In this document: piece by piece, positions 19,922 through 34,174 of the stretch
Numbering within the stretch: the stretch's first letter is position 1
How the letters are laid out: the number at the start of each line of letters is the position of its first letter
Source of the DNA: Celeribacter sp. PS-C1
GTDB taxonomy: Bacteria > Pseudomonadota > Alphaproteobacteria > Rhodobacterales > Rhodobacteraceae
Length of the DNA stretch: 64,000 nucleotides
NCBI RefSeq assembly: GCF_019429625.1
Contig: NZ_JAHXRW010000016.1
Coordinates: forward strand, 1-64,000
Reading direction: 5' to 3'
The notes under the pieces: generated by a model
Told to the model about the DNA's origin: nothing
Databases searched by the model: none
Seen by the model: only the letters and a program-made list of their open reading frames with translations
Position numbers and translations under genes: made by a program

Positions 19922-19937
19922 TGGCGCACCCAAGAGG
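19922..19937. repeat. attL core (16-bp direct repeat)
   Basis: TGGCGCACCCAAGAGG matches 34159-34174 exactly and corresponds to the CCA end, acceptor stem and start of the T stem of tRNA-Arg. It marks the junction left behind on the side without the complete tRNA. Confidence 0.85.
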
Positions 19938-19950
19938 GGCATTCTCTCGC

Positions 19951-20042
19951 TAGCGACCGATAGCAACCGGGGATAACTTTTAGCATCAATTCAACAGCTT
20001 AGAATGAATAAGGCGGAAAACCTTTAGCAGCCATTAGCAACC
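19951..20042 (+). repeat. Paired TAGCRRCC arm-type repeats beside attL
   Basis: Four related octamers occur as two pairs: TAGCGACC at 19951 with TAGCAACC at 19961, and TAGCAGCC at 20025 with TAGCAACC at 20035. Each pair is spaced exactly 10 bp, one helical turn. This is what cooperative binding by integrase or an excisionase would need. Binding is inferred. Confidence 0.5.
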
Positions 20043-20069
20043 CGCCCCAGCCTAGCGCACAATCTTTTT

Positions 20070-20129
20070 GGGGTAGAAAATGGGTAGCACCTTGCTTTCA
20101 GGAAGTTCGATTACATAAAAAGGGGTAGA
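20070..20129 (+). repeat. GGGGTAGA arm-type repeats, left side
   Basis: GGGGTAGA at 20070 is followed 11 bp on by TGGGTAGC at 20081, and GGGGTAGA recurs at 20122. The same arrangement (GGGGTAGA then GGGGTAAG, 11 bp apart) lies at 34099-34117 near the other end, so these are candidate integrase arm sites. Confidence 0.55.
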
Positions 20130-20150
20130 AGCACAGAACGGAGCTCCCAT

Positions 20151-21452
20151 ATGGCCAAGCCGAAACTTTCAACTGTTAAGGAACTAGACGCCCTGACCCA
20201 CACGGGGGCCAATGACAAGCCCGAGCGATATGGCGTTGAGGGCATTCCGGGTCTTTACATGCAGATCACCCCGAAAGGGAGCAAGAGCTGGCTTTTGCGA
20301 GTGTCAGTGAATGGCAAGAGCCGCGAGCTAGGTCTTGGCGGCTATCCTGAAAACGGCCTCAAGGACGCTAAAAACAAGGCCAAGGAACAGCGCGCCAAAG
20401 CGCAGCTTGGCATTGACGCTAAGGCTGAAAAGGAAGAGACCCGAGCCAAGAACGCTGCCGCAGCACGCGAGGTCGAGGCCAAGTCCTACACCTTCGAAAA
20501 GGCGCTGGACGATTACGTTGATATTAAGCGCGCCACATTCAAAACATATAAGGCTCAGATGCAGTGGGAGTCGCCAGTGCGCCGGTACGCCCTGCCAGTG
20601 GTTGGCAAAATGCTGGTGGACGAAATCACCGTGCAAGACGTGCTTAAGATCATTCAGCCGCTTTGGGACACCAAGAACGAAACCGCCGGTCGGGTACGTT
20701 CGCGCATGGAGTTGATTATCGCGTCGGCAACTGTGAGGGGATATCGCAAGGGAGACAACCCGGCCCGATGGGTCGGCAACTTGGCAGCGGTCCTGCCCCC
20801 GGCCAAGGCAGTTCATAAGGTTCGCAATATGCCTGCAATCCCATTTGCGCGGGCGGCTGAATGGTTTGCTGAGCTTCACCAGTGCGCGGGCATGGGCGCT
20901 CGTGCCTTGGAGTTCCTTGCCCTAACCACCGTGCGCTCCGGCAACGTGCGCGGGGCCGTTTGGGACGAGATAGACCTTGAAGCGGGCATTTGGGAAATAC
21001 CGGCGGAGCGCATGAAAATGCGTCAAGCACACGCGGTTCCACTCGCCACGGCTGCCCTCGACCTCCTGAAAGCCCTGCCCCGCATGCAAGGCAATCCACT
21101 TGTGTTCCCGGCCCCGCGCGGCGGTGAGCTTTCCGACATGACCCTGAGCGCCACCATGCGCCGAATGCACGCCGCCAAGCTGGAACAAGACGGTATCGGC
21201 TGGATTGACGAAACGAGCAAGGCCCCGGCAGTGCCGCACGGCCTGCGCAGTACGTTCCGCGATTGGGCTGGCGATATGACCGAATACCCGCGCGAGCTAG
21301 CCGAAATGGTCTTGGCGCACACTGTCGGTGGGGTTGAGGGCGCATACCGACGAGGACAGGCTATAGAGCGCCGACGCCCCATCATGGAGGCATGGGCCGC
21401 GCACCTTACCGGCGCAGAACAGGAAAGCGGAAAGGTGGTGCGCTTTGGTTAA
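20151..21452 (+). CDS. int: P4-type tyrosine recombinase (integrase)
   Basis: 433 residues. The N-terminal ~90 residues are the arm-binding domain (DUF4102-like: IPGLYMQITPKGSKSWLLRV, LGLGGYP), a core-binding SAM-like domain follows, and the C-terminal catalytic domain has Arg in LALTTVRSGNVRG, HxxR in HGLRSTFRDW, the later His in VLAHTVGG, and Tyr in GAYRRGQ. It catalyses recombination between element and chromosomal att sites. It reads inward from attL, 213 bp away, as usual for tRNA-targeting elements. GGAGCTCCCAT before the ATG serves as ribosome site. Confidence 0.93.
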   Translation: MAKPKLSTVKELDALTHTGANDKPERYGVEGIPGLYMQITPKGSKSWLLRVSVNGKSRELGLGGYPENGLKDAKNKAKEQRAKAQLGIDAKAEKEETRAKNAAAAREVEAKSYTFEKALDDYVDIKRATFKTYKAQMQWESPVRRYALPVVGKMLVDEITVQDVLKIIQPLWDTKNETAGRVRSRMELIIASATVRGYRKGDNPARWVGNLAAVLPPAKAVHKVRNMPAIPFARAAEWFAELHQCAGMGARALEFLALTTVRSGNVRGAVWDEIDLEAGIWEIPAERMKMRQAHAVPLATAALDLLKALPRMQGNPLVFPAPRGGELSDMTLSATMRRMHAAKLEQDGIGWIDETSKAPAVPHGLRSTFRDWAGDMTEYPRELAEMVLAHTVGGVEGAYRRGQAIERRRPIMEAWAAHLTGAEQESGKVVRFG

Positions 21453-21453
21453 G

Positions 21454-21915
21454 ATGAACTTCGACGCGACCAAGCCTTTCAGTTGGAAAGACACCTATCC
21501 GACGCCGGAAGAATATGCACAGGCCGCGTGGGAGCGCGAATATACATGCGACACTCTGGATGAATTGATCGAACACGCCTACGATTTCCTTGCTGCATAC
21601 GAAGAACTACATAAGTTTGCTGTCATGAACAGAGACGTCCTGTCAAATGAGGTCAAGGTAGCCATATTCGACGCGCTTATGGTTCCTAAAAAGCCACACA
21701 AGAGCAGTGCCGTGACGGATTTCAAGAAAGGGGTTCTTCGTTCTATCGCTATAGTCCTGCATCGCGACTATGGTCTGCCCTATACGCGGAACAGCGAGAA
21801 CGACACGCACATAAAGAGCGCGGCATCCGTGATGGCAGGCCTTAAGATCGAGAACGGCGAAAAGTCAATAAACAAGAAGCTCGCCGGGCTACCTACCCGC
21901 AAAAAAGAGAGCTGA
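21454..21915 (+). CDS. Hypothetical protein directly after the integrase
   Basis: 153 residues from the ATG at 21454, just after the int stop; a TTG at 21445 inside int is an alternative. It is soluble and mixed in composition, with an acidic, aromatic N-terminal part (FSWKDTYPTPEEYAQAAWERE) and a basic tail (KLAGLPTRKKES). No family is recognised. The tight coupling to int suggests a role in integration or excision control, but that is inference. Confidence 0.6.
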   Translation: MNFDATKPFSWKDTYPTPEEYAQAAWEREYTCDTLDELIEHAYDFLAAYEELHKFAVMNRDVLSNEVKVAIFDALMVPKKPHKSSAVTDFKKGVLRSIAIVLHRDYGLPYTRNSENDTHIKSAASVMAGLKIENGEKSINKKLAGLPTRKKES

Positions 21916-21983
21916 TTTTTGCGTGCAATTTTCTAGCGCGACCAAGCTAATTTGGGTGCAACCTAAAGCAATAGGAGCACCCG

Positions 21984-22160
21984 ATGACCTATCTCGACGT
22001 GAAACAAGTCGCCGCCCGTTATGGCGTTCACAGACAAACGATCTGGCGCTGGCGCAGCGGCTTGCCCGACTTCCCGCAGCCTGTGGCCTTTGGTCCGCAA
22101 ACCGTGCGCTGGTCGAAGCAGAGCCTTGACGACTGGGACGCCTCACGCCTTTTGGCGTGA
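21984..22160 (+). CDS. AlpA-like helix-turn-helix regulator
   Basis: 58 residues with AGGAGC 6 bp before the ATG. The whole protein is a short MerR-like winged helix: MTYLDVKQVAARYGVHRQTIWRWR, then LPDFPQPVAFGPQTVRWSK and a final SLDDWDASR helix. This is the AlpA/Cox-like excisionase and activator family found in P4-type satellites and PICIs, where it switches the element from silent to excised or replicating. Position after int fits. Confidence 0.8.
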   Translation: MTYLDVKQVAARYGVHRQTIWRWRSGLPDFPQPVAFGPQTVRWSKQSLDDWDASRLLA

Positions 22161-22281
22161 TGGCGCCTGCCCCCGGCGCAAGTCTTTGTTGAAATTCAAA
22201 TTTTTTAATATTGATTCAATAGAAATACCCCCATTTGCCCCATTGCGAGCGTTTCTCTCCTGCCATATTTAATATTTATTA

Positions 22282-22298
22282 GGTCAGCAATGCTGACC
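22282..22298. promoter_or_regulatory. Perfect 17-bp palindrome before the RHH gene
   Basis: GGTCAGCA at 22282-22289 and TGCTGACC at 22291-22298 are perfect inverted halves around one base. It lies 19 bp before the start of the RHH gene and after an AT-rich stretch, a good place for an operator bound by the RHH protein, the AlpA-like protein or a helper-phage factor. Confidence 0.55.
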
Positions 22299-22317
22299 CA
22301 AACTACAGGATAGCCAG

Positions 22318-22479
22318 ATGGAAGAAGTCAAGAACTTGATTACGCCGGTGCCAGAGAGTGTGCACCGCGCTATCAAACAGGAAGCCGCCGAACGCGGCAT
22401 CACAATGACCGAAGTTGTGCGCGAACTTATTCAGCCGCTTATCGCGCGCCGAATGCTTCAAGTGGAGAACCACGCATGA
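22318..22479 (+). CDS. Small ribbon-helix-helix protein
   Basis: 53 residues: a short N-terminal strand (EEVKNLITPVP), then ESVHRAIKQEAAERGIT and MTEVVRELIQPLIARRM, the strand-helix-helix pattern of Arc/CopG repressors. It probably dimerises and binds the palindrome just upstream, controlling the replication genes that follow. It overlaps the next gene by 4 bp (ATGA). Confidence 0.65.
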   Translation: MEEVKNLITPVPESVHRAIKQEAAERGITMTEVVRELIQPLIARRMLQVENHA

Positions 22480-22799
22480 ACAGAAAGCAACGCAGAGCTA
22501 AGATCAAGCGCGGCAAACCGACCAAACGTCAACAACGCCTCTACGACGCGGCGATGGAGCTTTTCCGGGCATCCGGGTGCCTCCGGTGTGGCGCGCAAGA
22601 CGAAAGCAAAGGTGCCGCTATGCTGGCCGGAACCTTCCAGATAGTTTGCAATGATTGCGTGAAAGACGCAGACAGCATCATAGCCACCATTACGCCGGTT
22701 ATTGAAAGCCCCTACCCGCCCCAAATTGAAGGTCTCACTGCCTACGAAGTTACTGGCAAACCTAAACGTGCCGAATTTGTGAAGGTGAGCGACCAATGA
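22476..22799 (+). CDS. Small zinc-ribbon-like protein
   Basis: 107 residues. A very basic N-terminus (MNRKQRRAKIKRGKPTKRQQR) precedes two Cys pairs, CLRCGA at about residue 37 and VCNDCV at about residue 61, that could bind zinc. It overlaps both neighbours by 4 bp, so it is translated with the RHH gene and the next gene. A nucleic-acid-binding role in replication or regulation is likely; no specific family is recognised. Confidence 0.6.
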   Translation: MNRKQRRAKIKRGKPTKRQQRLYDAAMELFRASGCLRCGAQDESKGAAMLAGTFQIVCNDCVKDADSIIATITPVIESPYPPQIEGLTAYEVTGKPKRAEFVKVSDQ

Positions 22800-23668
22800 C
22801 AAAGAAAAATGACGATCTCGTGCAATACCTTAAGAGCGACAGCGCCGAACTGACCTTCCAGCGCATGTTGAGCGGGTATGTGATTGCATTCGCGCGCGAA
22901 GGGGCCACCGTGGAGGACTTCAAGGGCCACGCCTTCGCTAAGGGCTTCGCGGCCATACTGCGCCGGGGCATTGAAATGCAAACCATGTCTGACAAGAAGT
23001 ATCAGGCGGAGTTGAACAAGCTCAACACCGAGCACACGATTGACGACGTGTTGGCGACGGAGGGCATTGAATACCCGAAGCCGTGGAAGGTAAAGAACCC
23101 GACGCCCGCCAAGATCGCCAAGGTGACAAAGAACGCAATCGCGAACGGGCCGAACCGCATCCCGCCGCGTGAGTTGCCGCCTACGGCACAGCAACGCTTT
23201 GAACGCATGTCGATTGGCAATGTCACAGCGCTTAAAACTGGCCATAGCGCGCCGCAAAGCCCGCCGCCGGGGCAAGGCCAGGCAAAAGCGCTCAGTGCGC
23301 CCCCTGCCCCCGCCGCAACGCCGCCTAGCCCGCCCCAAATTGGTAGGCCACCCAGCCGCACCGCGCAGTTTACCGTGATGGCGCAATCGCGCAGCGATAA
23401 CGAGCAACAATACTGGAACGTAACCCTTCGCGACGACATGGACCGCAAGGTCTTGCTTCGCTTCGCCCTCAACGCCGCGCCTGAGACGCAAGCGCAATGG
23501 GGCAAGCTCATGATGCACTTTGTGCAGCGCCTTGGCATGACGGGCCACGAGACCGACCCGAACGCGATCCTTAGGCGCACTATTGATATTCCAGTCGGGC
23601 GTCTCAACGGCAAGCGGTCGAACACATTCGCTGGGCTGGCATCTGTGGGGGCGGTGCTGGAAGCATGA
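22796..23668 (+). CDS. Hypothetical protein with Pro-rich linker
   Basis: 290 residues in three parts: an N-terminal ~125-residue helical, charged region; a linker of ~45 residues rich in Pro, Ala and Gln (SPPPGQGQAKALSAPPAPA); and a C-terminal ~100-residue part with TAQFTVMAQSRSDNEQQYWN and an RRTIDIPVGRLNG-like stretch. No family is recognised. Overlap with the zinc-ribbon gene and proximity to the primase suggest a replication accessory role. Confidence 0.6.
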   Translation: MTKKNDDLVQYLKSDSAELTFQRMLSGYVIAFAREGATVEDFKGHAFAKGFAAILRRGIEMQTMSDKKYQAELNKLNTEHTIDDVLATEGIEYPKPWKVKNPTPAKIAKVTKNAIANGPNRIPPRELPPTAQQRFERMSIGNVTALKTGHSAPQSPPPGQGQAKALSAPPAPAATPPSPPQIGRPPSRTAQFTVMAQSRSDNEQQYWNVTLRDDMDRKVLLRFALNAAPETQAQWGKLMMHFVQRLGMTGHETDPNAILRRTIDIPVGRLNGKRSNTFAGLASVGAVLEA

Positions 23669-23828
23669 TGATCTACATCGGCTCGAGATATGGCGTGGCG
23701 TTTGGTCAAAGCCGAGCTTGAGGGCGACACCCTGCTACCCGCGAAAAACTAACCCGAAATTTGCGCGCAACTCTTCTGAACTCCGGCGGTAGTCATGGAC
23801 TATCGAAACCACCAAAGGAGTAAACGGA

Positions 23829-24029
23829 ATGCACTATTTTTATGCGATGGCGGACGACCAAATGGTTTTGCACGTCTACCAACAAAAGAACGACGAGAAA
23901 CTCACCAGAGAGCTGGCGCTGGCGCGCTTGAGAGGCGGGATTTATGGCACGACCACGCGCCCGGACCAAATCCGCTTATATGATAAAAAGTATGCGCACT
24001 TTGAAACCATTGAGTTGATCTCTGAATAA
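23829..24029 (+). CDS. Small hypothetical protein
   Basis: 66 residues with an excellent ribosome site (AAAGGAG, 8 bp before ATG) and a strong terminator right after the stop, so it is very likely expressed. The sequence is aromatic and charged (MHYFYAMADDQMVLHVYQQ), with no cysteine or membrane segment. No family recognised. The 160 bp before it contain only tiny frames. Confidence 0.6.
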   Translation: MHYFYAMADDQMVLHVYQQKNDEKLTRELALARLRGGIYGTTTRPDQIRLYDKKYAHFETIELISE

Positions 24030-24031
24030 TC

Positions 24032-24333: not shown

Positions 24334-26799
24334 ATGCAAATTCAAGACAATGCGACGCCTTTGGGCGATAGCGCAACTGTGCCGTTTGACCCGCTGATCG
24401 GGTTCTATGGTGAAGGTCGTGGCTTTTCTCTTACCCGGAAAGGCGAAGGCGAATACGCCCCGATAACATGGCGGCAACTGACCCACATGATGCGCAGCAC
24501 GTCACGAGCGCCTGCCCCCTCGGTTGCCGAGATAGACGCCAAGGTAAAGAACCTACTTTCTGTAGCTAAAGACGCGAAAGAAGGCTCCAAAGCCGCTGAG
24601 TTCGCCACATTGTCAGAAGACGAGCAAAGAGCTATCGCCTGCGATGAATGTCACGCTGACATTAAAGGTCGGCAACCGTGGGTTATCTACAGCGACTATC
24701 GCGAATGGGACGCCCGCACTTCCGCCGCACAGGAAGATAAAGGTGTAGCGCTGGCCGTTGGCATCGACGCCGACGATGTGAAGGTTGAGGCTGTGAAGAG
24801 TGCCTTAGCGCAGGTCCTGCCCGGCGTTCGGTACGCCTTAGTGACTTCTTACAACCATCTTCGCGGCGCTAAAGGCCCGCGCGTTCGCGTGGTGGTGCCA
24901 ATGACCAAGGGCTTCCATCCAAGATCGTACCCATACTTCGCACAGGCGATCTACGAGGAAATGGCGAAGCACGGCGTTGTCTGTGACGCCACCAGCGGCA
25001 AGGTCACTCAAATTCAATACTTCGGCCAAATCCATTGTGAAGGCACCCCGGAGTTCTACGAGAACGACGGTGCGGCGCTGGACGTCTTGGAGTTCCCTCA
25101 TCTGATGGAGCGCACAGAAGCGCTCTTCTGGGAAGATCATGCAAACGCGGGTAAGACGTCAGAGCGCCAACAGCAAGGCGCGCTTTACGAGTTCAACCGT
25201 CATGTCCACACCGAGCAGCTTTTGCAGATGTTTCATTACGAGCTGCAAAGCAACGACAAATGGAAATACCCGAACCAGTCCAACGCGGGCACCTTGGTCG
25301 TCCACGACGACGGCGGCTGGGACAGCCTTAGCGGAACAATGCTTGACGAGGTTGGCGGCCTTAAGGGCGCTTGGACCAAAGACAACCGGGTTGGCGGAGA
25401 CGCCGCTACACTGTTCGTCAAACACGCCCTTGTTGATCATTGCGGCATGGACCCCACGGCTGCCTTCAACACCGTGGTTCAGATCGGTCATGCGATGTCT
25501 CTTGGCTACCAGCTAAATATGTTCGATCCGGTGTCGCAGGCAAAGGCATTTAGCCCCGACGACCTGACACCACCGACCGGCCCGTGCTCGCCTCAGAGCT
25601 ATCGCGCTTGGTTTACAGCGCATGGCGCATGGCTGTGGCAGAACCTTCGCGTCATTGGGGACCAGCCAGCCCCCGCAGCACTGGACCTTTCCGCTGATAC
25701 CCCATCGCTTTTTGAATTCAGCTTTGCAACAGGAGACGAAATGACCGAACAAGTATTCTACCACATCGACCCGTGGCTTCCGCGTAATTCGGTCGTCGCC
25801 TTCTATGGCCGAGGCGAAACGGGCAAATCGACGTTGGTAAGCACGATCTGCGCAAGCGTTTCGGATAAGGTTTCAACGCTTTGGGTTAGCAGCGAGGAAA
25901 ACAAAAACCAGATCGCCGTGCGCTACACAAAATCCGGGGGCCATACGAACACCCTTGTGCCCTTGTCCGCTGCACCGAAGTTGAACGGAACGGATAAGGT
26001 CGCAATTTTCGACTGCTACGAGCATCTGGAAAAGACGATTTGCGACGTTAAGGCCGCGTGCCACCAGAGCCGCCCCCTTGGTGTTGTCGTGCTCGATGCC
26101 ATTGGTGCACTGGTCACTTGGAAGAAAGGTGAAAATGCCAATGACGACGGAGCGGTAAAGCGCCTTATAGCGCATCTGAGCACTCTGGCAGAACGGCATG
26201 AAGTCACCATTGTAATGATTGGTCACTTCAACAAGCGGGCGCAGTTGGAACAGTATGTCTCTGACGCCGTAACTGGGTCAGCCGCTTGGACAAACTCGCT
26301 GCGGCGTGCGTTTGCCTGCGTAAAGGACGAAACGAGCGAAGACGGTTTCAGCAACTTTGTCCTGTCCGTTAAAGGCAACCAAGGTTCCCCGCTGGCCTGC
26401 GCGTATAAGACGATCCCGGTGCACACCATCCATTCACGAGCAACCGTGGTGAGCGGATCCGCCGATGAGGTCTTGTGCAAAACAGAATTCACAACTGAAA
26501 TTCAATGGGGCACAAAAGCTGTCAGGGATATGGTGTACGAAGGCGAAGAGCACGAGACCACCGCGAAGAAAAAGGCGAAGAGCAAAGACCAGCTTTCCGC
26601 CATGGCAGACGCGTTCAAAGACGCCGTGCTGCAGATCGGTCGGCCTTGTTCAAGGGCCGATGTAGAAGGCTACATTAAGCAACAACGCGGCCTTAAGATT
26701 TATCCCTACCATTACAGCAAAGGGCTGGACGAGTTGATACAGGAGCGCGCCGTGAAAATTGAAGCATTGCCGCACAACAAATTCCAATACTCTTGCTGA
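24334..26799 (+). CDS. Primase-helicase replication protein
   Basis: 821 residues; AAAGGAAA precedes the ATG. The N-terminal ~250 residues resemble a primase-polymerase-like region (WVIYSDYREWD, then YALVTSYNHLRGAKGPRVRVVVPM). From about residue 470 there is a RecA/RepA-type helicase: Walker A FYGRGETGKSTLV near 490-500, Walker B GVVVLDAIGAL near 585, and a sensor stretch VTIVMIGHFNKRA. The last ~90 residues are basic and winged-helix-like (RADVEGYIKQQRGLKIYPYHY). Such fusions start and drive replication of satellites and plasmids. It is followed by a terminator and an AT-rich candidate origin, so the element probably replicates itself after excision. Confidence 0.8.
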   Translation: MQIQDNATPLGDSATVPFDPLIGFYGEGRGFSLTRKGEGEYAPITWRQLTHMMRSTSRAPAPSVAEIDAKVKNLLSVAKDAKEGSKAAEFATLSEDEQRAIACDECHADIKGRQPWVIYSDYREWDARTSAAQEDKGVALAVGIDADDVKVEAVKSALAQVLPGVRYALVTSYNHLRGAKGPRVRVVVPMTKGFHPRSYPYFAQAIYEEMAKHGVVCDATSGKVTQIQYFGQIHCEGTPEFYENDGAALDVLEFPHLMERTEALFWEDHANAGKTSERQQQGALYEFNRHVHTEQLLQMFHYELQSNDKWKYPNQSNAGTLVVHDDGGWDSLSGTMLDEVGGLKGAWTKDNRVGGDAATLFVKHALVDHCGMDPTAAFNTVVQIGHAMSLGYQLNMFDPVSQAKAFSPDDLTPPTGPCSPQSYRAWFTAHGAWLWQNLRVIGDQPAPAALDLSADTPSLFEFSFATGDEMTEQVFYHIDPWLPRNSVVAFYGRGETGKSTLVSTICASVSDKVSTLWVSSEENKNQIAVRYTKSGGHTNTLVPLSAAPKLNGTDKVAIFDCYEHLEKTICDVKAACHQSRPLGVVVLDAIGALVTWKKGENANDDGAVKRLIAHLSTLAERHEVTIVMIGHFNKRAQLEQYVSDAVTGSAAWTNSLRRAFACVKDETSEDGFSNFVLSVKGNQGSPLACAYKTIPVHTIHSRATVVSGSADEVLCKTEFTTEIQWGTKAVRDMVYEGEEHETTAKKKAKSKDQLSAMADAFKDAVLQIGRPCSRADVEGYIKQQRGLKIYPYHYSKGLDELIQERAVKIEALPHNKFQYSC

Positions 26800-26857: not shown

Positions 26858-26867
26858 TGCGGCGCGC

Positions 26868-26998
26868 AGCTATATAGGGCCACTCCCCTATTATATGGCC
26901 CATATTTCTATATATCTAATATTTCTAATATTATGGCCTATGACAGCTATATAGAAATATAGCTATATAGCCCAAATAGGAGGGGGTACTCTATATAG
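26868..26998. other. Candidate replication origin with four CTATATAG palindromes
   Basis: The self-complementary octamer CTATATAG occurs at 26870, 26947, 26963 and 26991 within an AT-rich 130-bp stretch. Two copies form a larger inverted repeat (AGCTATAT and ATATAGCT around AGAA at 26945-26964). The stretch lies directly after the primase-helicase gene and its terminator. Repeats in AT-rich DNA beside the initiator gene are typical of P4-type origins. No experiment supports it here. Confidence 0.55.
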
Positions 26999-27382
26999 CG
27001 TGGCTTGCAACAACAACCGACAGCGGCCGATTGATGTTTGAAAAATGGACAGATGCAGCAACCCACCTATAAAAACCTTAACGAGCCGCCCCCACGGCTG
27101 CCAGAGCATCCAACAAACAGCCAATAACGACTTGACAGGATATTCCCAGCTCCTCACCACCTGCCCCCGATCAGACGTCCGCCAAATCCCAGCTGAATTG
27201 TGCAGCGCCGCCACAGGTCCGCTTTGAGCCCTTAGTGCCGTATGTCAGAACGTTTTGATTCCTTGTCCTGTGCATCTAAATGGCAGGAAGGTAGCTTTTC
27301 GCCGCCCCTTCATCAAAGTCTGCGCTACGGGTATTGCGGTGATCCGTTGCAAACAGTCTGTATGTCCAGAAACGTAAACTCG
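26999..27382. other. Non-coding stretch between origin and cargo genes
   Basis: About 380 bp with only short frames lacking ribosome sites. It lies downstream of the minus-strand cargo block and may hold part of the origin, its single-strand initiation site, or a regulatory RNA, but no clear structure is visible. Confidence 0.4.
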
Positions 27383-27958
27383 CTAATGGTCCATGAGCTT
27401 TTTTAGAAATTGGGCGGTAAACATCTCTGGCTTGGCCTTCATGACGTAATGAAGCGGCCTTCTAAGAACGTATTGCTTATCGCGCTGCGGGTCATAATGG
27501 TGACATTCGAATAGTAAATCTGTATCGAGATCATCAAGGCTTTGGCCCTCAAACAGAGTACCCTCAAAGCTGATCTCAAGGTGTTCACCACCGTTTAGGA
27601 CATGCTTTGGCCTGTATTCTGCGCGCTGCGAGGACATAAAAACCCAGTCATCTTCCGGGCTTGATCTTCCGTGTCTTTCGTCGAATTCCACGCGGGATGA
27701 TGTAACCACGAGGCGTCGAAGCACCACAGGATAGGTTCGGCGGTTCCATAACTCTAACTCGACAAATATCGCACAACCCAAACGGTCTTCGACGTTCTTC
27801 GACTTTAAACCGTGAGTTACATCCAGCAGGATCGGGGGCCAGCCAAAATTATTTCGATACGAGTGGCGAAGGGAGATGACAGCAACGGTGATACCGGTTG
27901 CAGTCAAGGTCACGTATGCAATGAATTGCATGATGTCTAATAAATCGGCGTTAATCAT
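27383..27958 (-). CDS. Hypothetical membrane-anchored protein (cargo)
   Basis: 191 residues from the ATG at 27958, which follows AGGAAGACG. One N-terminal membrane segment (IMQFIAYVTLTATGITVAVISL) is followed by a cytoplasmic or periplasmic domain of ~160 residues rich in beta-strand-like stretches (CAIFVELELWNRRTYPVVLRRLVVTSSRVEF). It is opposite in direction to the element's main genes, like cargo. No family recognised. Membrane-anchored small proteins at this place in satellites are often helper-phage interference or exclusion genes; that is inference. Confidence 0.6.
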   Translation of the reverse strand: MINADLLDIMQFIAYVTLTATGITVAVISLRHSYRNNFGWPPILLDVTHGLKSKNVEDRLGCAIFVELELWNRRTYPVVLRRLVVTSSRVEFDERHGRSSPEDDWVFMSSQRAEYRPKHVLNGGEHLEISFEGTLFEGQSLDDLDTDLLFECHHYDPQRDKQYVLRRPLHYVMKAKPEMFTAQFLKKLMDH

Positions 27959-28506
27959 TCGTCTTCCTGATAACATTAAATAACAGGCTTACACTCGACT
28001 AGTTGAGCTGTCGACTGGACCTCGGAGCAACCGCCTGTAGGAATTTAATCCGAGGTCGGCCCTGCGCCGGTCGTCTATTCCCTTATGCGGAATCGCCCGA
28101 ACTTTGCAAAGCTCGCTTCCCTGCACATTGCCGACGCTCGAACCGCTGCAGACTGCGGATGCAGCGAAATGCGGCTCCGTCCGCGCAAATGCCGTGCAGC
28201 CCATTTCCGCCCTCCCAGCCCTTCAAAGCGCCAAAGGCATGAATTTGGACGGCCTAGACGGCGCTTCGCGCAATCAAATAGCCTCCCCGCCGGTGCAGCC
28301 CGCGCGCCCGGCCCTCCACCCACGGCTGCCAATTATAAGCCCAACAAAGCAGCCGCTCAGACTTGATTGCAAACGCGAATTTCCCCGATCCGATCAGATA
28401 CCCCATTCAATACCCCCTCTCGGAGAGCATAATCCATGACATTAATACAGCTTGTTTGACTTGGGGTAGCTGTCTCATCCACAAGGTTGCGGCGGAAATT
28501 CTGGCC
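27959..28506. other. Region without a convincing gene
   Basis: About 550 bp. Several overlapping short frames exist on both strands, but all are Ala/Pro/Arg-rich with no ribosome site and look like chance frames in GC-rich DNA. It may contain the promoter for the 27958 gene and the leftover of an older insertion. Confidence 0.4.
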
Positions 28507-28779
28507 TCATTCCTGGTCCGCCAGAAGATCAATCCAGTTTACACCTAGCGCATCGGCAATCTTTTCTACTGTTCTAAGTGTTGGAGAATGGTCCCCTTTA
28601 AGCAACATACTAATATACCCACGCGAACTTCCAATATCTAACGATAGCTGGGTGGGGTAAATTCCGTTCTTATCTAGCATCTTGGAGAGATTTTTTTTGA
28701 ACACTGACGTCAGCGGGTCATTCTTCACAACGAATATCCAGTAACATTTTTTGTATGCCCGAGAGGCCAAATACGGCAT
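28507..28779 (-). CDS. XRE/Cro-type helix-turn-helix protein
   Basis: Up to 90 residues; a GTG at about residue 18 (VKNDPLTSVF) is an alternative start that would give a normal-length HTH protein of ~73 residues. The stretch LSKMLDKNGIYPTQLSLDIGSSRGYISMLLKGDHSPTLRTVEKIADALGV is a clear XRE helix-turn-helix in short segments. It likely acts as a repressor of this block or of the element. It stands alone on the minus strand. Confidence 0.75.
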   Translation of the reverse strand: MPYLASRAYKKCYWIFVVKNDPLTSVFKKNLSKMLDKNGIYPTQLSLDIGSSRGYISMLLKGDHSPTLRTVEKIADALGVNWIDLLADQE

Positions 28780-28869: not shown

Positions 28870-28891
28870 CTCACATCAGATTTTGAAAAGC

Positions 28892-29221
28892 TCAGTAACC
28901 GTTTTTGAGGATGTCACTCACTCGCATACTTTCCTCATTTCGGGCATAACACTCACGCTTAATCAAATCTCCGAATTCACGGTATGATCCCCTGAATTCA
29001 CGCGCAAAATCCTCATAAACGGGGATGTAGTCTTTCGTCACCATATCCACTGGAATAGATAAATCATCCGCCTTAACCCAGTAAGCGACAGCGGCTGCGA
29101 TGCGCGCCTGCTCCTCGCATTGTTCAATAACCTGCTCAGATAAGGTTACTTCTTTAGGCACATCATTTGCGACGAGGATCCCGTTAATGACCGAAAACAA
29201 ACCTACAAGAACCAGTTCCAT
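28892..29221 (-). CDS. Small hypothetical secreted or membrane-associated protein
   Basis: 109 residues from the ATG at 29221. A hydrophobic N-terminus (MELVLVGLFSVINGILVAND) may be a signal peptide or anchor; the rest is acidic and helical with two cysteines (VIEQCEEQARI, LIKRECYARN). No family recognised. The GGGGGTA ribosome site lies inside a hairpin (29224-29253), so translation may be controlled. It has its own terminator, making it a self-contained cargo unit. Confidence 0.55.
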   Translation of the reverse strand: MELVLVGLFSVINGILVANDVPKEVTLSEQVIEQCEEQARIAAAVAYWVKADDLSIPVDMVTKDYIPVYEDFAREFRGSYREFGDLIKRECYARNEESMRVSDILKNGY

Positions 29222-29223
29222 AA

Positions 29224-29253
29224 AAATACCCCCATCGGTTGACGGGGGTATTT
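29224..29253 (-). promoter_or_regulatory. 5'-leader hairpin covering the ribosome site
   Basis: AAATACCCCC at 29224-29233 pairs perfectly with GGGGGTATTT at 29244-29253. On the minus strand the 3' arm contains the GGGGGTA ribosome site and ends 2 bp before the ATG at 29221. It could shut off translation or act as a terminator for transcripts from upstream. Confidence 0.55.
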
Positions 29254-29508
29254 GAAGCATAGCCTGATCCAGAAGGGAAGAGGCTTATTGCTCTTGTCGA
29301 AGTTGGGGCAAAATAACTTCCTAGATGGACTCAGGGAGCGATTTGACCACACCCGAAATAACATTAATTTCACATCACAACACAATGTAAACATTAATTA
29401 AATTTCAAAAAATTTCATTTGCGATAGCCCTAAGAGGCCCTATTATGGGCCTAGGTGCTTACGGCACACCGAGCCGCTGCAAACCCAAAAAGAACAAAAG
29501 GTGAACTA

Positions 29509-29964
29509 ATGGCACAAGACAGACTGATCACTGCACTGGTCTCGCCGGAACTGCATCAGGATTTTGCATCCCTCGCCAAGTCCAAAGGCATGAGCGCGTC
29601 CGAGCTTGCGCGCGGCTATCTGCTCAAGGGCATGACGCTGGAAGCTGAGAAAGCCGGATTTCCGGCCATGGCGGAGATCGGCGACGAAAGCTCCATGCGG
29701 GAATATCTGCAACTGCGCTTCGGCCTCGCCCCCACGGTTGCCAATGAACTCGTCACCTTCGCAAAGCATCTGCTCGCCACGACGCCCCCAGCGGAGGTGG
29801 TTATGCAAACCGCGCTCTTTCTGAGCGATGCACGGGGCGAAGCGCCGCTCTATTCCAGCATTGACGAAATGCGCGGCTCCCTACTCGCTTGCGGGCTGAG
29901 CAACGAGCAAGTGCGCGTTTTGGTGAACGGCGCGAAATTCATGGCGGAGGTCGAACATGCCTGA
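29509..29964 (+). CDS. RHH-like N-terminal protein, first gene of the packaging block
   Basis: 151 residues from the ATG at 29509 (AAAAGGTGA upstream). The N-terminus (RLITALVSPELHQDFASLAKSKGMSASELARGYLLKGM) follows a ribbon-helix-helix pattern; the remaining ~110 residues are helical and not recognised. It opens a tight run of co-directional genes through the prohead protease, so it may regulate or take part in packaging. The next start lies inside its last codons (8-bp overlap). Confidence 0.6.
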   Translation: MAQDRLITALVSPELHQDFASLAKSKGMSASELARGYLLKGMTLEAEKAGFPAMAEIGDESSMREYLQLRFGLAPTVANELVTFAKHLLATTPPAEVVMQTALFLSDARGEAPLYSSIDEMRGSLLACGLSNEQVRVLVNGAKFMAEVEHA

Positions 29965-30070: not shown

Positions 30071-30198
30071 GCTTGAAAGACAAGATCACGAAAGAGGTCG
30101 CCGCGCTTGAGGCCAAGGGCAAGGACGCATCGGCATACGAAAAGATGCAGCTCGACAATCTCAAGCTCAAGCTGGCTGCCATGGACCAGAAAGGCTAA
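30067..30198 (+). CDS. Tiny helical protein (43 residues)
   Basis: Starts in the ATGA overlap and ends 4 bp before the protease gene. A charged, Lys-rich helix (MSLKDKITKEVAALEAKGKD). It could act as a coiled-coil partner or scaffold-like peptide. Gene reality is inferred from the overlap chain and position. Confidence 0.5.
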   Translation: MSLKDKITKEVAALEAKGKDASAYEKMQLDNLKLKLAAMDQKG

Positions 30199-30202
30199 CG
30201 CC

Positions 30203-30745
30203 ATGTTCATCGAAGGATACGCCAGCCACATTTCAATCGACAGCGCCCGCGACATGGTGTTGCCGAGCGCCTTCGCTGACAGCATTGCCAAATACGGGAT
30301 CAGCGGCCCGAAGGGTATCAAGCTCCTTGCATACCACGACACCCGGATGCCCATTGGCGCGATCACCAAACTGGAAATGCGCAACAGCGGCCTTTGGATG
30401 GAGGCTGAGCTTGATGAAGGCATCAGCTACGCCAAAGACCTCGCCGCTGCGATCCGCGCAAACGGCGGGCTGTCCTATTCTATCGGCTATCGGCTGGTGG
30501 ACGTTGATTTTATCGACAACGCCCCCGAGCCGTATTTCAAGATCAACAAGCTGGACCTGCGCGAAATCAGTGTCGTGACCATTCCCTGCAACAGCGAATG
30601 CGTCATGGCCTACTCTGACAGCCGCGAGGCCAAAATGTTGAGCGACATTCGCGCCATGAAAGCCGCCTTCGCACCGACCGGCGGCATGGCGCAATCAATG
30701 GCCGAATTCAAACAAGCAATCAAGGAACTGAAGAATGGACGTTGA
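30203..30745 (+). CDS. HK97-type prohead protease (peptidase S78)
   Basis: 180 residues. It shows the S78 layout: MFIEGYASHI at the start, a DMVLPSAF stretch, catalytic His45 in LLAYHDTRMPIG, the serine in GGLSYSIGYRL (Ser91 or Ser93), and the late LREISVVTIPCN block. In HK97-like phages this enzyme cleaves the scaffold and delta domain of the major capsid protein during maturation. Here no capsid gene follows; instead a 151-residue unknown gene overlaps its end by 11 bp. It may process helper-phage capsid or have been adapted to disturb it. Confidence 0.82.
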   Translation: MFIEGYASHISIDSARDMVLPSAFADSIAKYGISGPKGIKLLAYHDTRMPIGAITKLEMRNSGLWMEAELDEGISYAKDLAAAIRANGGLSYSIGYRLVDVDFIDNAPEPYFKINKLDLREISVVTIPCNSECVMAYSDSREAKMLSDIRAMKAAFAPTGGMAQSMAEFKQAIKELKNGR

Positions 30746-31190
30746 AGTTTTGCAGGCCCGACTTTCGCGGCAAACTGGCGACGAGCGCCAGAACATGCTC
30801 ATTGCCACCCGCGTTTCGCCCAAACGCCTTTCCGACTGGCTGGCCTTGCCTAATGCGCACCCGCTGGAACCCGAAGAGGTGGACGAGCTTTTGGGATGGG
30901 TGCATGGCGAGTTCGGCATGGACAGCCGCACGCAAGGCTGGATCAGGATCAAGCGCGCCGATGTGGCAACCGTGAAGATGCAGCGCTTCGCAGCGCCGAA
31001 AATCGAGGCCAAGACCTACACGGCAGGCCAAGGCACCACTGGTGCCAAGGTAATCAAAGAGGCGAGCGCCCCAGTTGGCAATCAGAACGTGCCGGAAGCT
31101 GAACGCGCCAAGGCGAACCGCAAACCGGACGTGCCTGCGAAGAACGAGAAAGAGACGCAACCGTTGTTCGGGCTTGGGTGGCGCAAATGA
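30735..31190 (+). CDS. Hypothetical protein in the place of a capsid gene
   Basis: 151 residues. It has an N-terminal helical domain of ~90 residues (RVSPKRLSDWLALPNAHPLEPEEVDELLGW, in pieces) and a long hydrophilic, Lys/Pro-rich tail ending PLFGLGWRK. It is far too small and the wrong composition for a major capsid protein. It is translationally coupled to the prohead protease, so it is a candidate partner, substrate or capsid-remodelling factor. No family recognised. Confidence 0.6.
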   Translation: MDVEVLQARLSRQTGDERQNMLIATRVSPKRLSDWLALPNAHPLEPEEVDELLGWVHGEFGMDSRTQGWIRIKRADVATVKMQRFAAPKIEAKTYTAGQGTTGAKVIKEASAPVGNQNVPEAERAKANRKPDVPAKNEKETQPLFGLGWRK

Positions 31191-31273
31191 GCGTGCACGA
31201 CGTCCCGCCGTGCACACAGAACCCGCCGGAGGAGCTTCCAACCAAGCCACCGCGTCAGACCGGCGCTGATTAG
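31187..31273 (+). CDS. Possible 28-residue Pro-rich peptide
   Basis: Starts in an ATGA overlap with the previous gene and ends at TAG 31271-31273. Reads MSVHDVPPCTQNPPEELP and so on, with seven or more prolines. Overlap with the neighbour is the only support. Confidence 0.35.
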   Translation: MSVHDVPPCTQNPPEELPTKPPRQTGAD

Positions 31274-31371
31274 CCGGGGTAAATGCAGGGGTGGCGCGAT
31301 CATGGCCAGATGTAGCGCAATGCAAACAAACCTTTATGGCCCCCGCAATGGGCGCTTAGGAGAAAACGCCA

Positions 31372-32112
31372 ATGGCGCAAGGTAAGACCAACCGCGTGAA
31401 CAGCCCCCTTCTGGACAAGTATCTGGACTACTGCCCCGATCCCGAAGCCATTTGGGAAATTCCCGTAGGCTTTGACGATACACCCACCTCGTCGCTGCGC
31501 GAGAACGGAAGCGGCAACCCTGCCCGCTTCGACAGCCCCATGGAGCTTTGGGAGGCATGTCGCGCCTATCTGCGCTGGTGCGTCGGCAACCCGCGCCATG
31601 AAGCCAAATTCTTCCACCATGACGGTGTCGGCAAGACGCACAAAGTCAACCTCGCACGGGTGCCAACGCTTACTGGCCTGTGTTCGTTCCTTGGCGTGTC
31701 GCAAATGACGCTCAACGCATGGTCGAACCCAGACGCCAAGAACGCGGTTGAGCGCTTCCACCCGGTGATGGAGCATTTCCGCAATATCATCTTTGACGAG
31801 AAGTATTCGGGCGCAGCCGTTGGCACGTACAACGCCGGATTTATGGCCCGCGACCTCGGCCTCATGGAGAACTTCAACGTCTCCGGCCTGCCCGAGACCA
31901 ACGTCACCAACAACGTGACCGTTGCCGACCCGTTCCCGCAGGAAGACCGTGCCGTGTGCGTCCACCCCGACGACCCCGACCCTTTCAACCCAGACGGCCC
32001 GCGCTTCACCATGCGCCAGATTGCCATGGGCATTCCGTTCTTCGCTCCGAACAAAGAACAGTACGCCGCGACCAAACTGCCACCACCGCCCAAAGAGGAG
32101 ACAGACGAATGA
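31372..32112 (+). CDS. TerS-like DNA-packaging protein (small terminase)
   Basis: 246 residues; AGGAGA lies 9 bp before the ATG. The central part resembles P22 gp3-type DNA-packaging proteins: WEACRAYLRWCVGNPRHEAKF, then a helix-turn-helix-like LCSFLGVSQMTLNAWSN, and YNAGFMARDLGLMENFNVSG near the end. Small terminases choose which DNA is packaged; satellites such as SaPIs and PICIs carry their own to redirect a helper's large terminase to satellite DNA. No large terminase is present here, which fits that use. The acidic C-terminal tail may contact the helper's large subunit (inference). Confidence 0.7.
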   Translation: MAQGKTNRVNSPLLDKYLDYCPDPEAIWEIPVGFDDTPTSSLRENGSGNPARFDSPMELWEACRAYLRWCVGNPRHEAKFFHHDGVGKTHKVNLARVPTLTGLCSFLGVSQMTLNAWSNPDAKNAVERFHPVMEHFRNIIFDEKYSGAAVGTYNAGFMARDLGLMENFNVSGLPETNVTNNVTVADPFPQEDRAVCVHPDDPDPFNPDGPRFTMRQIAMGIPFFAPNKEQYAATKLPPPPKEETDE

Positions 32113-32279
32113 CAAAACCCGATTACAACAAACCGCCCTATTCAGTTGAAGACGCCGAGACCGGCAAGATGATCCCGACACCTCAGAACCCGCATTACTC
32201 TGCATGGAAGGCCAAACAGGACATGAAGCGACAGACCACGGTCAACGGCACAGCGAAGTCAATGCCGCGCGCCGGATAG
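32109..32279 (+). CDS. Small hypothetical protein coupled to TerS
   Basis: 56 residues, ATGA overlap with the TerS-like gene. A hydrophilic sequence with several prolines and lysines (MTKPDYNKPPYSVEDAET). No family recognised. Its coupling suggests it works with TerS. Confidence 0.55.
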   Translation: MTKPDYNKPPYSVEDAETGKMIPTPQNPHYSAWKAKQDMKRQTTVNGTAKSMPRAG

Positions 32280-32500
32280 AACCGCCTACCCTGAGTAGAC
32301 TTTCAGTTCATAGCTGACTTTCAAGCCTCGCGCAGAGGACGACCAGTCTTAGCTCATAGCTGCGCTCCCTTCCAAGTGCAGCAACTTGGCCACGCGAAGA
32401 CCGAGTATGAAAAGGTCAGTCGCGAAGATATTTCGTCAAGATCGAAGCGCCGAACATTGGCACTCAATCAAGAAAGCTTTCTACTAGTTGATATTATGGG
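32280..32500. other. Intergenic region upstream of the KAP gene
   Basis: About 220 bp of lower GC with no gene. It separates the packaging block from the KAP gene and presumably holds its own promoter, so the KAP gene is likely an independent cargo unit. Confidence 0.4.
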
Positions 32501-33940
32501 GTGTTCGAGCCTTCGACTTCGTGGTTTGTAAATAGTATCGAACCGTTATTCGGCACAAGCGCCAAGATGAGGGAGAAAATGAAAGGCTCAATTGATGAAG
32601 ACGACGTTTGGTGCGACGATCGACTCGGGTATTCAAAAATTGGCGCCGCATTTACCAACATCGTGAAGTCAATTTCGGATAGTAAAGTGATTTCCATCGA
32701 GGCGCCCTTTGGTCATGGAAAGACCTTCTTTCGAGAGAGGTGGACCAAGGAGTTGGAAGCATCCGGTGAGAGGGTCATTGCAATTGACGCTCAGCAGTCG
32801 GACCATTCGGGCGACCCCTTAATAACTTTCATGGGCGCACTTCTTTCGGAGAAGTCGAGGGAGGGAGAGCCGCTTTCCGCCAAGCTGAAAAACAAGGCTT
32901 TGCAGCTCGGCGGGCTATTGGGGCGATCAACGCTCCGTGTTCTTCTTCGAAATGGTGCAGAAGAGCTCATCGAAGCTGGCGCGGATTGGGTTAAGGATAA
33001 ATCCCCAGATATTCAGCAGATCGACGAAAGCGTCGATGAATTAAAGGAAGGACTTTCCAAGGCCGCAGGACACATGATTGCCACCCATCTGGCGGCGGAA
33101 CACGCAAGAATTCACGAACTCCCAGAGCAAATTGACTCCATCAGAGACACATTAACCGACGGATACGAAAACAATAGGATAATCATTATCATCGACGAGC
33201 TAGATCGTTGCCGCCCTGAATATGCGATATTGTTGCTCGAGTCCCTAAAGCTCGTATTCGGCAGGCAAGGGTTTGTATTTTGTTTGATGGTTAATCACAG
33301 TTATTTGGAAAGTATCGCGCATCATCGGCTCGGCACTGGAAATCAGGGCGAGCTTTACTTGGAGAAATTCATCGACTTGCGACTTCGATTGAAGCCTAAA
33401 GCGGGTATGTCGGCACTTCTAGCTGAGGAAGCATTCAAAGACCTTAGCGTTAGCATTCCCTATGGCGACGTTGCGACGTTTGGTCCAAAGCCAATGCTGG
33501 AGCTTCTCGTTAGAATCGTTGAAAACGAGGGGCCATCAATTCGCCAAATTAAGCGCGCATACGAAAGAATGGATTTGCTAACGAGAATGTATAGGGAGCA
33601 TCCTATTGACCTCCCTCTTTTAATGGTCATGACATTTGAAGACGCTTTGGCAAGAGAAGGGATCATTGAAAAGTATCTACCCCGCGGGGAGCTTTCGCCT
33701 GAAAGCATATCAAGATTCGCGGATGAATACGATGAAGCCTCAAGGATGGACGCTTCCCGATTGTTCATGCTGGACGAGTATTTTGACGAAACTTTTGGTG
33801 AGTTGGTCGGATTGGCCCCACATCGCTACGGCTACAACGAAGACCTTCCCGCGCCAATTCAACAAATTAAAGACCTTGCGCCTCGTTATATTTCGGCGCA
33901 TCGACGAATGTTGGATGGTGTCATGGAAATTCAAGTCTGA
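32501..33940 (+). CDS. KAP-family P-loop NTPase (cargo, possible phage defence)
   Basis: 479 residues from a GTG at 32501 with a weak ribosome site; an ATG at 32579 behind GAGGGAG is an alternative that keeps the NTPase intact. Walker A lies at residues 68-75 (APFGHGKT) and the KAP signature IIIIIDELDRCRP at 227-239. Between them is a long helical insertion with only weakly hydrophobic stretches, so unlike many KAP proteins it may be soluble or peripheral. KAP NTPases occur in several bacterial conflict settings. It sits alone next to attR, the usual cargo place in satellites. Function in defence is inferred. GC and codon use are lower than in its neighbours. Confidence 0.8.
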   Translation: MFEPSTSWFVNSIEPLFGTSAKMREKMKGSIDEDDVWCDDRLGYSKIGAAFTNIVKSISDSKVISIEAPFGHGKTFFRERWTKELEASGERVIAIDAQQSDHSGDPLITFMGALLSEKSREGEPLSAKLKNKALQLGGLLGRSTLRVLLRNGAEELIEAGADWVKDKSPDIQQIDESVDELKEGLSKAAGHMIATHLAAEHARIHELPEQIDSIRDTLTDGYENNRIIIIIDELDRCRPEYAILLLESLKLVFGRQGFVFCLMVNHSYLESIAHHRLGTGNQGELYLEKFIDLRLRLKPKAGMSALLAEEAFKDLSVSIPYGDVATFGPKPMLELLVRIVENEGPSIRQIKRAYERMDLLTRMYREHPIDLPLLMVMTFEDALAREGIIEKYLPRGELSPESISRFADEYDEASRMDASRLFMLDEYFDETFGELVGLAPHRYGYNEDLPAPIQQIKDLAPRYISAHRRMLDGVMEIQV

Positions 33941-34098
33941 AATCTGAAAACATAGCCAAATGCCAGAAGCACCGGCTTCCTTCCGCAGCCCTCAATCGAA
34001 ATAAAGATCATTGGACTTATTTAGCGCCGAATGAAAATTCGGAGACAGTCTTTGTGTGTGGCTCGCTAACACGGCTGCCCCTAGCCGAAAAAGCATAT

Positions 34099-34117
34099 GG
34101 GGTAGATATGGGGTAAG
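34099..34117 (+). repeat. GGGGTAGA arm-type repeats, right side
   Basis: GGGGTAGA at 34099 followed 11 bp on by GGGGTAAG at 34110, about 42 bp from attR. Same spacing as the 20070/20081 pair on the left, as expected for shared integrase sites. The stretch from 33941 also contains a small hairpin (CCGAAT and ATTCGG near 34027-34042) and no gene. Confidence 0.55.
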
Positions 34118-34158
34118 CTCCCAAAAATCCTTAAATTCCCAATGGTTTCAAATGTGTT

Positions 34159-34174
34159 TGGCGCACCCAAGAGG
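34159..34174. repeat. attR core inside tRNA-Arg
   Basis: The same 16 bp as 19922-19937, covering the CCA end, acceptor strand and first T-stem bases of the complete tRNA-Arg gene. Confidence 0.85.

What the first reader, a model, noticed from the sequence alone, without database searches (positions are those of the whole stretch)
19922..34174. Phage-satellite-like element with its own replication, prohead protease and TerS, but no capsid
A 14.2-kb unit sits precisely between 16-bp att repeats at tRNA-Arg. It combines a P4-type integrase, AlpA-like regulator, primase-helicase, HK97-type prohead protease and TerS-like protein, with no capsid, portal, large terminase or tail gene. Known satellites carry either no head genes (P4, SaPI-type) or a nearly full head set (capsid-forming PICIs). 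Having only protease and TerS is an unusual middle case and may be an undescribed satellite type in Rhodobacteraceae.
Basis: partly seen in the sequence, partly recalled or inferred. Interest (0 to 1): 0.85.

Follow-up and report, generated by a model that had tools for sequence, protein, structure and literature searches.

The report
Capsid-less phage satellite with head protease
A 14-kb mobile element in a bacterium of the family Rhodobacteraceae looks like a parasite of phages that carries its own DNA-packaging adaptor and its own capsid-maturing protease but no capsid, and related genes point to one lineage of lytic phages as the likely victim.

Summary
A 14,237-bp unit lies between exact 16-bp repeats of the tRNA-Arg(CCG) 3' end. 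It carries integrase, AlpA, primase-helicase, an HK97-type (S78) protease and a P22 gp3-type TerS; no capsid, portal, large terminase or tail gene was found. The same block (RHH-like gene, protease, a 151-aa protein called orf151, TerS) recurs in two other Rhodobacteraceae genera beside tRNA-Ser genes. Neither shows a capsid; one adds a TerL; one is cut by a contig end and has a broken protease. The three proteases form one clade (100/100) with those of the Milano/7-7-1/JY38 phage lineage. The one TerL falls (99/98) with the sub-lineage that also carries gp3-type TerS. In my searches orf151 and the TerS C-terminal tail occur only in the three elements. Best reading: a PICI-type satellite that replicates itself, redirects packaging with its own TerS and adds its own shortened maturation protease, preying on Milano-lineage lytic phages. 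Mobilisation is untested. Protease plus TerS without capsid was not seen in my searches.

The parts
19922..19937 (.). left att repeat, 16 bp, remnant copy
34159..34174 (.). right att repeat, 16 bp, inside the tRNA-Arg 3' end
34159..34235 (-). tRNA-Arg(ccg), intact target gene
   Evidence: tRNA-Arg(ccg) found in 18 of 19 same-genus loci
20068..20131 (+). GGGGTAGA-type repeats near the left end, possible integrase arm sites
   Evidence: pattern chosen after seeing the sequence
34097..34116 (+). GGGGTA-type repeats near the right end, possible integrase arm sites
20151..21452 (+). tyrosine integrase (Arm-DNA-bind_3, Phage_int_M, Phage_integrase)
21454..21915 (+). unknown gene whose ATG starts one base after the integrase stop (a TTG start at 21445 would overlap it)
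   Evidence: no family match; start context
21984..22160 (+). AlpA-like regulator/excisionase
   Evidence: Phage_AlpA 24.4 bits, cut-off 21
22318..22479 (+). small ribbon-helix-helix protein
   Evidence: below Pfam cut-off
22476..22799 (+). small Cys-motif protein, weak ClpX zinc-finger match
   Evidence: below cut-off
22796..23668 (+). unknown 290-aa protein
   Evidence: no match
23829..24029 (+). unknown 66-aa protein
   Evidence: no match
24334..26799 (+). primase-helicase (AAA_25, phrog_239/256/9765)
   Evidence: distant match to helicases of Roseobacter phages CRP-811/821/822/823/831
26867..27001 (.). AT-rich direct and inverted repeats 3' of the primase gene, candidate replication origin
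   Evidence: position as in PICIs (PMC6092414 passages)
27383..27976 (-). unknown 197-aa protein
   Evidence: no match
28507..28779 (-). Cro/CI-type HTH repressor-like protein
28892..29260 (-). unknown 122-aa protein
   Evidence: no match
29509..29964 (+). RHH-like protein by its weak kinship to the G255 RHH gene; first gene of the conserved block
   Evidence: no family match itself; weak match to the G255 gene in the same position (E 0.008), which has weak RHH matches
30203..30745 (+). HK97-type prohead protease (S78), C-terminally shorter than phage homologs
30735..31190 (+). orf151, found only in the three elements; a confidently modelled domain of about 70 aa and a disordered tail
31372..32112 (+). 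TerS, P22 gp3 family, with a C-terminal HPD tail shared by the three elements
32501..33940 (+). KAP P-loop NTPase, candidate anti-phage cargo (PADLOC PDC-S20, 1.1e-48)

Best explanation
It is an integrative phage satellite of the PICI kind. Inferred cycle: infection by a helper of the Milano/7-7-1/JY38 lineage of lytic myophages activates AlpA and the integrase; the element excises from tRNA-Arg, replicates with its own primase-helicase, and its TerS marks element concatemers for the helper's TerL and portal. The satellite's own S78 protease core, lacking the C-terminal part of the phage enzyme, works on helper proheads, whose capsid protein carries a long N-terminal piece removed by the phage protease. 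It thereby favours heads that mature for the satellite, or alters head size or timing. orf151 is a satellite-only partner encoded between the two. The KAP NTPase is defence cargo. Shown: anatomy, recurrence of the block, kinship of the proteases (and of the TerL of one relative) to that phage lineage. Inferred: induction, helper identity, packaging, the roles of protease and orf151.
For: Clean att and integrase/AlpA/replication anatomy. Same block in G255 and G130, which lie beside other tRNAs and belong to other genera. Proteases: satellite plus phage rows form a clade at 100/100 apart from 7 outgroup rows. G255 TerL groups at 99/98 with L205, L206, L207 and L213; L205-L207 and the near relatives L209, L211, L215 carry gp3-type TerS. 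A His and a Ser are invariant in 6 of 6 aligned proteases (that they are the catalytic pair is recalled). Shorter C-terminus: 84 and 59 residues after the Ser motif against 117-155 in the 26 of 28 phage loci that could be measured. TerS HPD tail in 3 of 3 elements, in 0 of 74 other TerS frames, and not seen in 5 phage-lineage TerS. 7-7-1 is called lytic and its MCP residues M1 to A164 are cleaved off by a prohead protease (PMC12796354 passages); Milano is predicted to package by headful (PMC6588377 passage).
Against: No excision, particle or helper data. Only two relatives, neither a clean full element: no integrase-like match and no copy of the tRNA 3' end was found for G255; G130 is cut by the contig end and its protease frame is broken. 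The TerS tree does not join the satellite TerS to the phage-lineage TerS and leaves them unresolved. The three satellite proteases lie on one side with only 68/72 support, and in an earlier tree G255 sat with the phages at 91/80. No pac site identified. The named phages of this lineage infect Agrobacterium and Synechococcus, none Rhodobacteraceae; 0 of 189 family genomes carry a JY38-type capsid gene, a search without a positive control.
Confidence: 0.68

Rival explanations
1. A reduced capsid-forming PICI or decayed prophage that lost capsid, portal, connectors and HNH; protease and TerS are leftovers.
For: The order protease - TerS - (TerL) is what remains of the cfPICI order capsid-protease-portal-closure-connector-HNH-TerS-TerL annotated in EDL933 after internal loss. 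G255 still has TerL. G130's protease is broken.
Against: The protease, orf151, TerS, primase and integrase frames of the window are open and the att is exact. The same reduced block recurs in three genera with a protein (orf151) and a TerS tail not found in phages. Milano-lineage phages have the order TerL-portal-protease-MCP, so one deletion does not give this order. No JY38-type capsid in 189 family genomes (no positive control).
Confidence: 0.2
2. Satellite (this overlaps the best explanation), but the protease and orf151 serve interference: the protease cuts helper scaffold or capsid early and blocks the helper, while the element travels in whatever heads remain.
For: The shortened protease keeps the invariant His and Ser but lacks the C-terminal part present in all 26 measured phage loci. 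Satellites are known to redirect helper head assembly (PMC6893505 passages).
Against: No direct evidence; TerS beside it argues for a packaging use.
Confidence: 0.3
3. An ordinary integrative defence island (KAP cargo) that does not move by phage; its phage-like genes are hitchhikers.
For: Copies of the tRNA-Arg 3' end elsewhere in same-genus genomes suggest that other islands use this site. No HK97-type capsid in the host genome.
Against: Recurrence of RHH-protease-orf151-TerS in three elements beside three different tRNAs with different replication genes.
Confidence: 0.08

Closest known systems
Gram-negative PICIs (e.g. PmCI172, EcCICFT073)
   Same: integrase, AlpA-type regulator, replication module, sometimes terS, about 12-15 kb (PMC6092414 passages)
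   Different: an HK97 protease; no capsid homolog; orf151; induction and helper unknown
Capsid-forming PICIs (element in EDL933 at 1680329-1694760, taken to be EcCIEDL933; that link is recalled)
   Same: integrase - HTH - primase - head genes - TerS - TerL; protease before TerS (annotation)
   Different: lacks capsid, portal, closure, connector, HNH and TerL; TerS is P22 gp3-type, not P27-type
PISP TG93 of Vibrio crassostreae (PMC13230959 passages)
   Same: partial head set including head maturation protease and small terminase
   Different: TG93 has capsid protein E, is a plasmid without a detected integrase, and has a MerR-like regulator
PICMI
   Same: int - small gene abutting int - alpA - prim; a virulent helper (PMC10803314 passages)
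   Different: no terS or other known packaging-redirection gene in PICMI115; PICMIs sit at fis; primase DUF3987/DUF5906
Milano/7-7-1/JY38 phage lineage
   Same: protease clade; TerL of the G255 element; gp3-type TerS in 6 of 25 IMG/VR loci
   Different: phages (complete named records 65.6-69.4 kb) with portal and capsid; longer protease; no orf151 found; TerS without the HPD tail

Membership tests
PICI (criteria of PMC6092414) | integrase, replication module and master regulator in conserved order | tested here: met
PICI | size typically 12-15 kb | tested here: met
   14,237 bp
[quoted passage not shown]
   no capsid, portal, tail or lysis family found, but a head-maturation protease is present
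PICI | att site never occupied by prophages | not tested
   tRNA 3'-end copies suggest other islands at this site in the genus; their content was not typed
PICI | phage-dependent induction and specific packaging | not testable with these tools
   needs infection and particle DNA
cfPICI | own capsid, portal, connectors, HNH, TerS and TerL | tested here: not met
   only protease and TerS found
P4-like | P4 capsid/helper genes (sid, psu, delta; recalled) | tested here: inconclusive
   no such family in the Pfam/PHROGs scans; not searched one by one
PICMI | int, alpA, DUF3987/DUF5906 primase, site at fis | tested here: not met
   primase is AAA_25-type, site is tRNA-Arg
HK97-type prohead protease (S78) | family profile above cut-off, conserved His and Ser | tested here: met
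P22 gp3-type TerS | GP3_package profile above cut-off | tested here: met

The most novel reading that the evidence does not exclude
A previously undescribed satellite family of Rhodobacteraceae that pirates lytic Milano-lineage myophages by 'maturation piracy': it supplies its own truncated prohead protease, a satellite-only partner protein and its own TerS, so that helper-made proheads are matured and filled for the satellite without any satellite capsid or scaffold gene. Volume scaling from a T=9 head holding Milano's 68.5 kb gives about 13.2 kb for T=3 and 20.3 kb for T=4, so a small head for the 14.2-kb element is possible.
Probability: 0.3. Interest if true: 0.82.

Novelty: new variant of a known kind. 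Interest (0 to 1): 0.62.

Why it matters
Known satellites steer head assembly with scaffolds, decoy capsid proteins or a whole head set (passages). A satellite that carries the maturation protease but not its substrate would be another point of attack and would make the timing role of prohead proteases testable with a natural variant. It also names a concrete helper lineage to test for satellites of the Rhodobacteraceae, a family abundant in the sea (recalled); three full-text searches for satellites in this family or its class returned no paper.

Tried and rejected
GTA origin of the protease: rejected. Trees separate the family and class proteases from the satellite plus Milano clade; I call those rows GTA/prophage-type from their hosts and ORF layout, not from a family scan. 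The host's own GTA looks collapsed.

One shared ancestry of all head genes with the helper lineage: only protease (all three) and TerL (G255) are supported; the TerS tree is unresolved with long branches.

Kin by replication gene: at E <= 1e-12 the primase rings only in its own genome of 295 family genomes; no match in plasmids, none confirmed in IMG/VR, and only distant Roseobacter phage helicases.

More satellites: orf151 profile 2 of 292 order genomes, own included; orf151 and satellite TerS in IMG/VR gave no further block; a genome-contig scan with TerS found nothing and one with the protease found only G130's record. Seven other protease loci in the class sample (8 of 385 genomes with own, E <= 1e-18) matched no other element protein, and their neighbours look, by ORF layout only, like ordinary head clusters.

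Fold of orf151: block pLDDT 80-93 for residues 1-70, mean 67 overall, and no significant PDB or viral match; weak winged-helix hits are not used.

Empty site: no genome with the window's left flank joined directly to tRNA-Arg was found. Of 20 genus genomes, four besides the window's own have a 0.8-1.5 kb match to the left flank, at 36 kb or more from tRNA-Arg or on another contig, so a clean empty site is not shown. The element's proteins had no match at E <= 1e-4 in the 19 same-genus tRNA-Arg loci (two are short, 1.8 and 4.4 kb).

Rows dropped before trees: none; one search kept 34 of 80 IMG/VR TerS loci (near copies left out) plus 11 others; one search used 21 of 30 TerL hits (near copies and stretches under 250 aa left out); one search left out 6 near copies (L208, L210, L213, L214, L215, L219).

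Paper searches on protease-bearing or Rhodobacteraceae satellites. A protease-plus-TerS satellite without capsid was not seen in the listings or in the passages I read; no paper was read whole. The main satellite survey (PMC10085698) is not held.
Full report
WHAT IS THERE. The element runs from 19922 to the tRNA-Arg(ccg) 3' end at 34159. The 16-bp repeat is exact; within the window the next longest match to that tRNA stretch is 12 bp. Repeats of the GGGGTAGA type lie near both ends; the pattern was picked by eye, so its excess over shuffles (16 matches with up to 2 mismatches against a mean of 7.2) is only descriptive. The integrase is at the end away from the intact tRNA. Then follow a gene starting directly after it, AlpA, small proteins, a 290-aa unknown and the 821-aa primase-helicase. 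AT-rich repeats lie at 26867-27001, 3' of the primase gene, where PICIs keep their origin (PMC6092414, passages). A minus-strand group holds a Cro/CI-type repressor-like protein. The last block is RHH-like protein, protease, orf151, TerS and KAP NTPase. The called genes cover 76% of the element.

THE HEAD GENES. The protease matches Peptidase_S78 and the HK97 proheadase equivalog above cut-off. The TerS is P22 gp3-type. No capsid, portal, TerL or tail protein was found by family scans of the 16 called proteins or by six-frame comparison with Milano and JY38 capsid and portal and Milano TerL.

RELATIVES. In a sample of 394 genomes of the family, 312 match the protease at E <= 0.001; I take most to be gene-transfer-agent proteases but did not check them one by one. 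TerS rings in 7 of 394 at E <= 1e-5, own included. Against the window the protease is 47% (133 aa) and 51% (113 aa) identical and orf151 43% (76 aa) and 31% (148 aa); TerS is 28-36% between the three. Both relatives lie beside a tRNA-Ser. G255 continues with a TerL (Terminase_3) and has a different AAA_25 replication protein; no convincing integrase match and no copy of the tRNA 3' end was found near it. G130's contig begins about 1.1 kb before the protease, and its protease frame is broken; an RHH-like reading frame is visible by eye upstream. Thus 0 of 2 relatives show a capsid gene, one of them with little upstream sequence, and 1 of 2 has TerL. The last gene before the tRNA differs in each: KAP NTPase, TerL plus a 108-aa ORF, or a 250-aa unknown. 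The orf151 profile rings in 2 of 292 genomes of the order (window and G255). No match to the window's orf151 was found in 50,697 phage records, nor to its profile in 28 loci of the phage lineage below.

WHERE THE HEAD GENES COME FROM. Among the listed hits in the phage records (20 of 1,015, 12 of 1,494 and 12 of 386 records), the lowest E-values for the window protease, the G255 TerL and the G255 protease all belong to Agrobacterium phages Milano, OLIVR4 and 7-7-1, followed by Synechococcus phages JY38 and Yong-L2-223. A profile search of IMG/VR gave 47 protease loci. The best 25 (L205-L229; near copies and 7-7-1 itself among them) are this lineage: a capsid-gene match lies after the protease in 24 of 25 (L218 is cut) and a portal match before it in 24 of 25 (L228 is cut); the other 22 matched only the protease. 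Six of the 25 also carry a gp3-type TerS upstream; several others have little sequence upstream. In the protease tree, the 3 satellite and 22 phage rows form one clade at 100/100 against 7 outgroup rows, and the satellite rows lie on one side at 68/72. In an earlier tree of 43 rows the satellites fell with Milano, OLIVR4 and JY38 at 100/99, but there G255 sat with the phages at 91/80. The G255 TerL falls at 99/98 with L205, L206, L207 and L213: the first three carry the gp3-type TerS, and L213 has the same TerL match values as L211 and L215, which do. The branch lengths of the satellite rows are long in all these trees. The TerS tree neither supports nor excludes a link: the lineage's TerS form their own clade (100/97) and the satellite TerS are long, poorly placed branches. 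The satellite TerS share a C-terminal tail (HPD..D, then T..Q...G.P). The motif was found in 0 of 74 recognisable TerS frames among 80 IMG/VR loci, and is not in the 5 lineage TerS read by eye; two of these contain NPDE near the end.

SHORTENED PROTEASE. Counting residues from the GG.[SN].S.G motif to the stop, the window has 84 and G255 59; 26 of 28 phage loci could be measured and have 117-155 (some are near copies). G130, with its broken frame, is not counted. One His and one Ser position are invariant in all six aligned sequences; that these are the catalytic pair of S78 is recalled.

HOW IT LIKELY WORKS. In 7-7-1 residues M1 to A164 of the capsid protein are cleaved off by a prohead protease, the head is T=9, and the phage is called lytic (PMC12796354, passages). 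Milano is predicted to package by headful (PMC6588377, passage). A satellite TerS that brings satellite DNA to the helper's TerL, as type 1 SaPIs do (PMC6893505, passages), plus a satellite version of the maturation protease fits these facts. Whether the protease helps satellite heads mature, changes their size, or harms the helper is open. Volume scaling gives 13.2 kb (T=3) and 20.3 kb (T=4) from 68.5 kb; the element is 14.2 kb. The KAP NTPase matches PADLOC PDC-S20 (1.1e-48) and is likely defence cargo.

NO RESIDENT HELPER SEEN. The host genome (40 contigs) has one S78 match, the element's own, no Phage_capsid match, and what looks like a GTA reduced to a terminase-megatron fusion. A capsid of another family was not sought. 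The JY38-type capsid is in 0 of 189 family genomes, as expected of a lytic lineage, though that search had no positive control.

COMPARISON. The annotated cfPICI of EDL933 runs integrase, HTH, primase (DUF927), capsid, protease, portal, closure, connector, HNH, TerS, TerL (annotation). The window element keeps that order minus capsid, portal, closure, connector, HNH and TerL. It meets the PICI anatomy and size criteria but not the cfPICI definition.

LIMITS. Three elements only, two imperfect; no pac site; no clean empty site; no functional data; the helper is predicted, and no Rhodobacteraceae phage of that lineage was identified.

Noticed in passing
G000 contig C34, 327661-330177 (L199 662-3178, minus strand): The host's gene transfer agent seems to have collapsed, perhaps by one large internal deletion: a single 838-aa ORF joins a terminase large-subunit N-terminal domain (residues 76-182) to the C-terminal half of the GTA 'megatron' (NF048004 positions 640-1298, 782 bits, cut-off 800). 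No Phage_capsid match and no S78 match besides the element's own is left in the genome.
   Followed up: partly
tRNA-Arg(ccg) site across the genus; G540:C2:479421-479470, G585:C16:77049-77093: Exact 45-50 bp copies of the tRNA 3' end lie 3-7 kb from homologs of the window's left-flank genes, about 32 kb from tRNA-Arg on the same contig (G540) or on another contig (G585), which suggests an integration hotspot for other islands.
   Followed up: partly
window 17965-19921: MOSC-domain and phosphomethylpyrimidine-kinase-family genes lie between synteny shared with G586 (up to about 17378) and the element; no same-genus tRNA-Arg locus has them nearby, and they may belong to an older island.
   Followed up: no
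window 21454-21915: A gene of unknown function starts one base after the integrase stop, a placement like the 'iolg' gene of PICMI satellites (PMC10803314 passages).
   Followed up: no
window 61551-64000: GC falls to about 0.51-0.53 from 61 kb on, around tRNA-Ser(cga) at 61551-61640, which may be the edge of a second island.
   Followed up: no
L205-L229, e.g. L207 and L211 (contigs of 65.5 and 61.0 kb): Phages of the Milano/JY38 lineage turn up in 25 IMG/VR loci (near copies and phage 7-7-1 itself among them), although only 6 of 50,697 named phage records carry the JY38-type capsid.
   Followed up: partly
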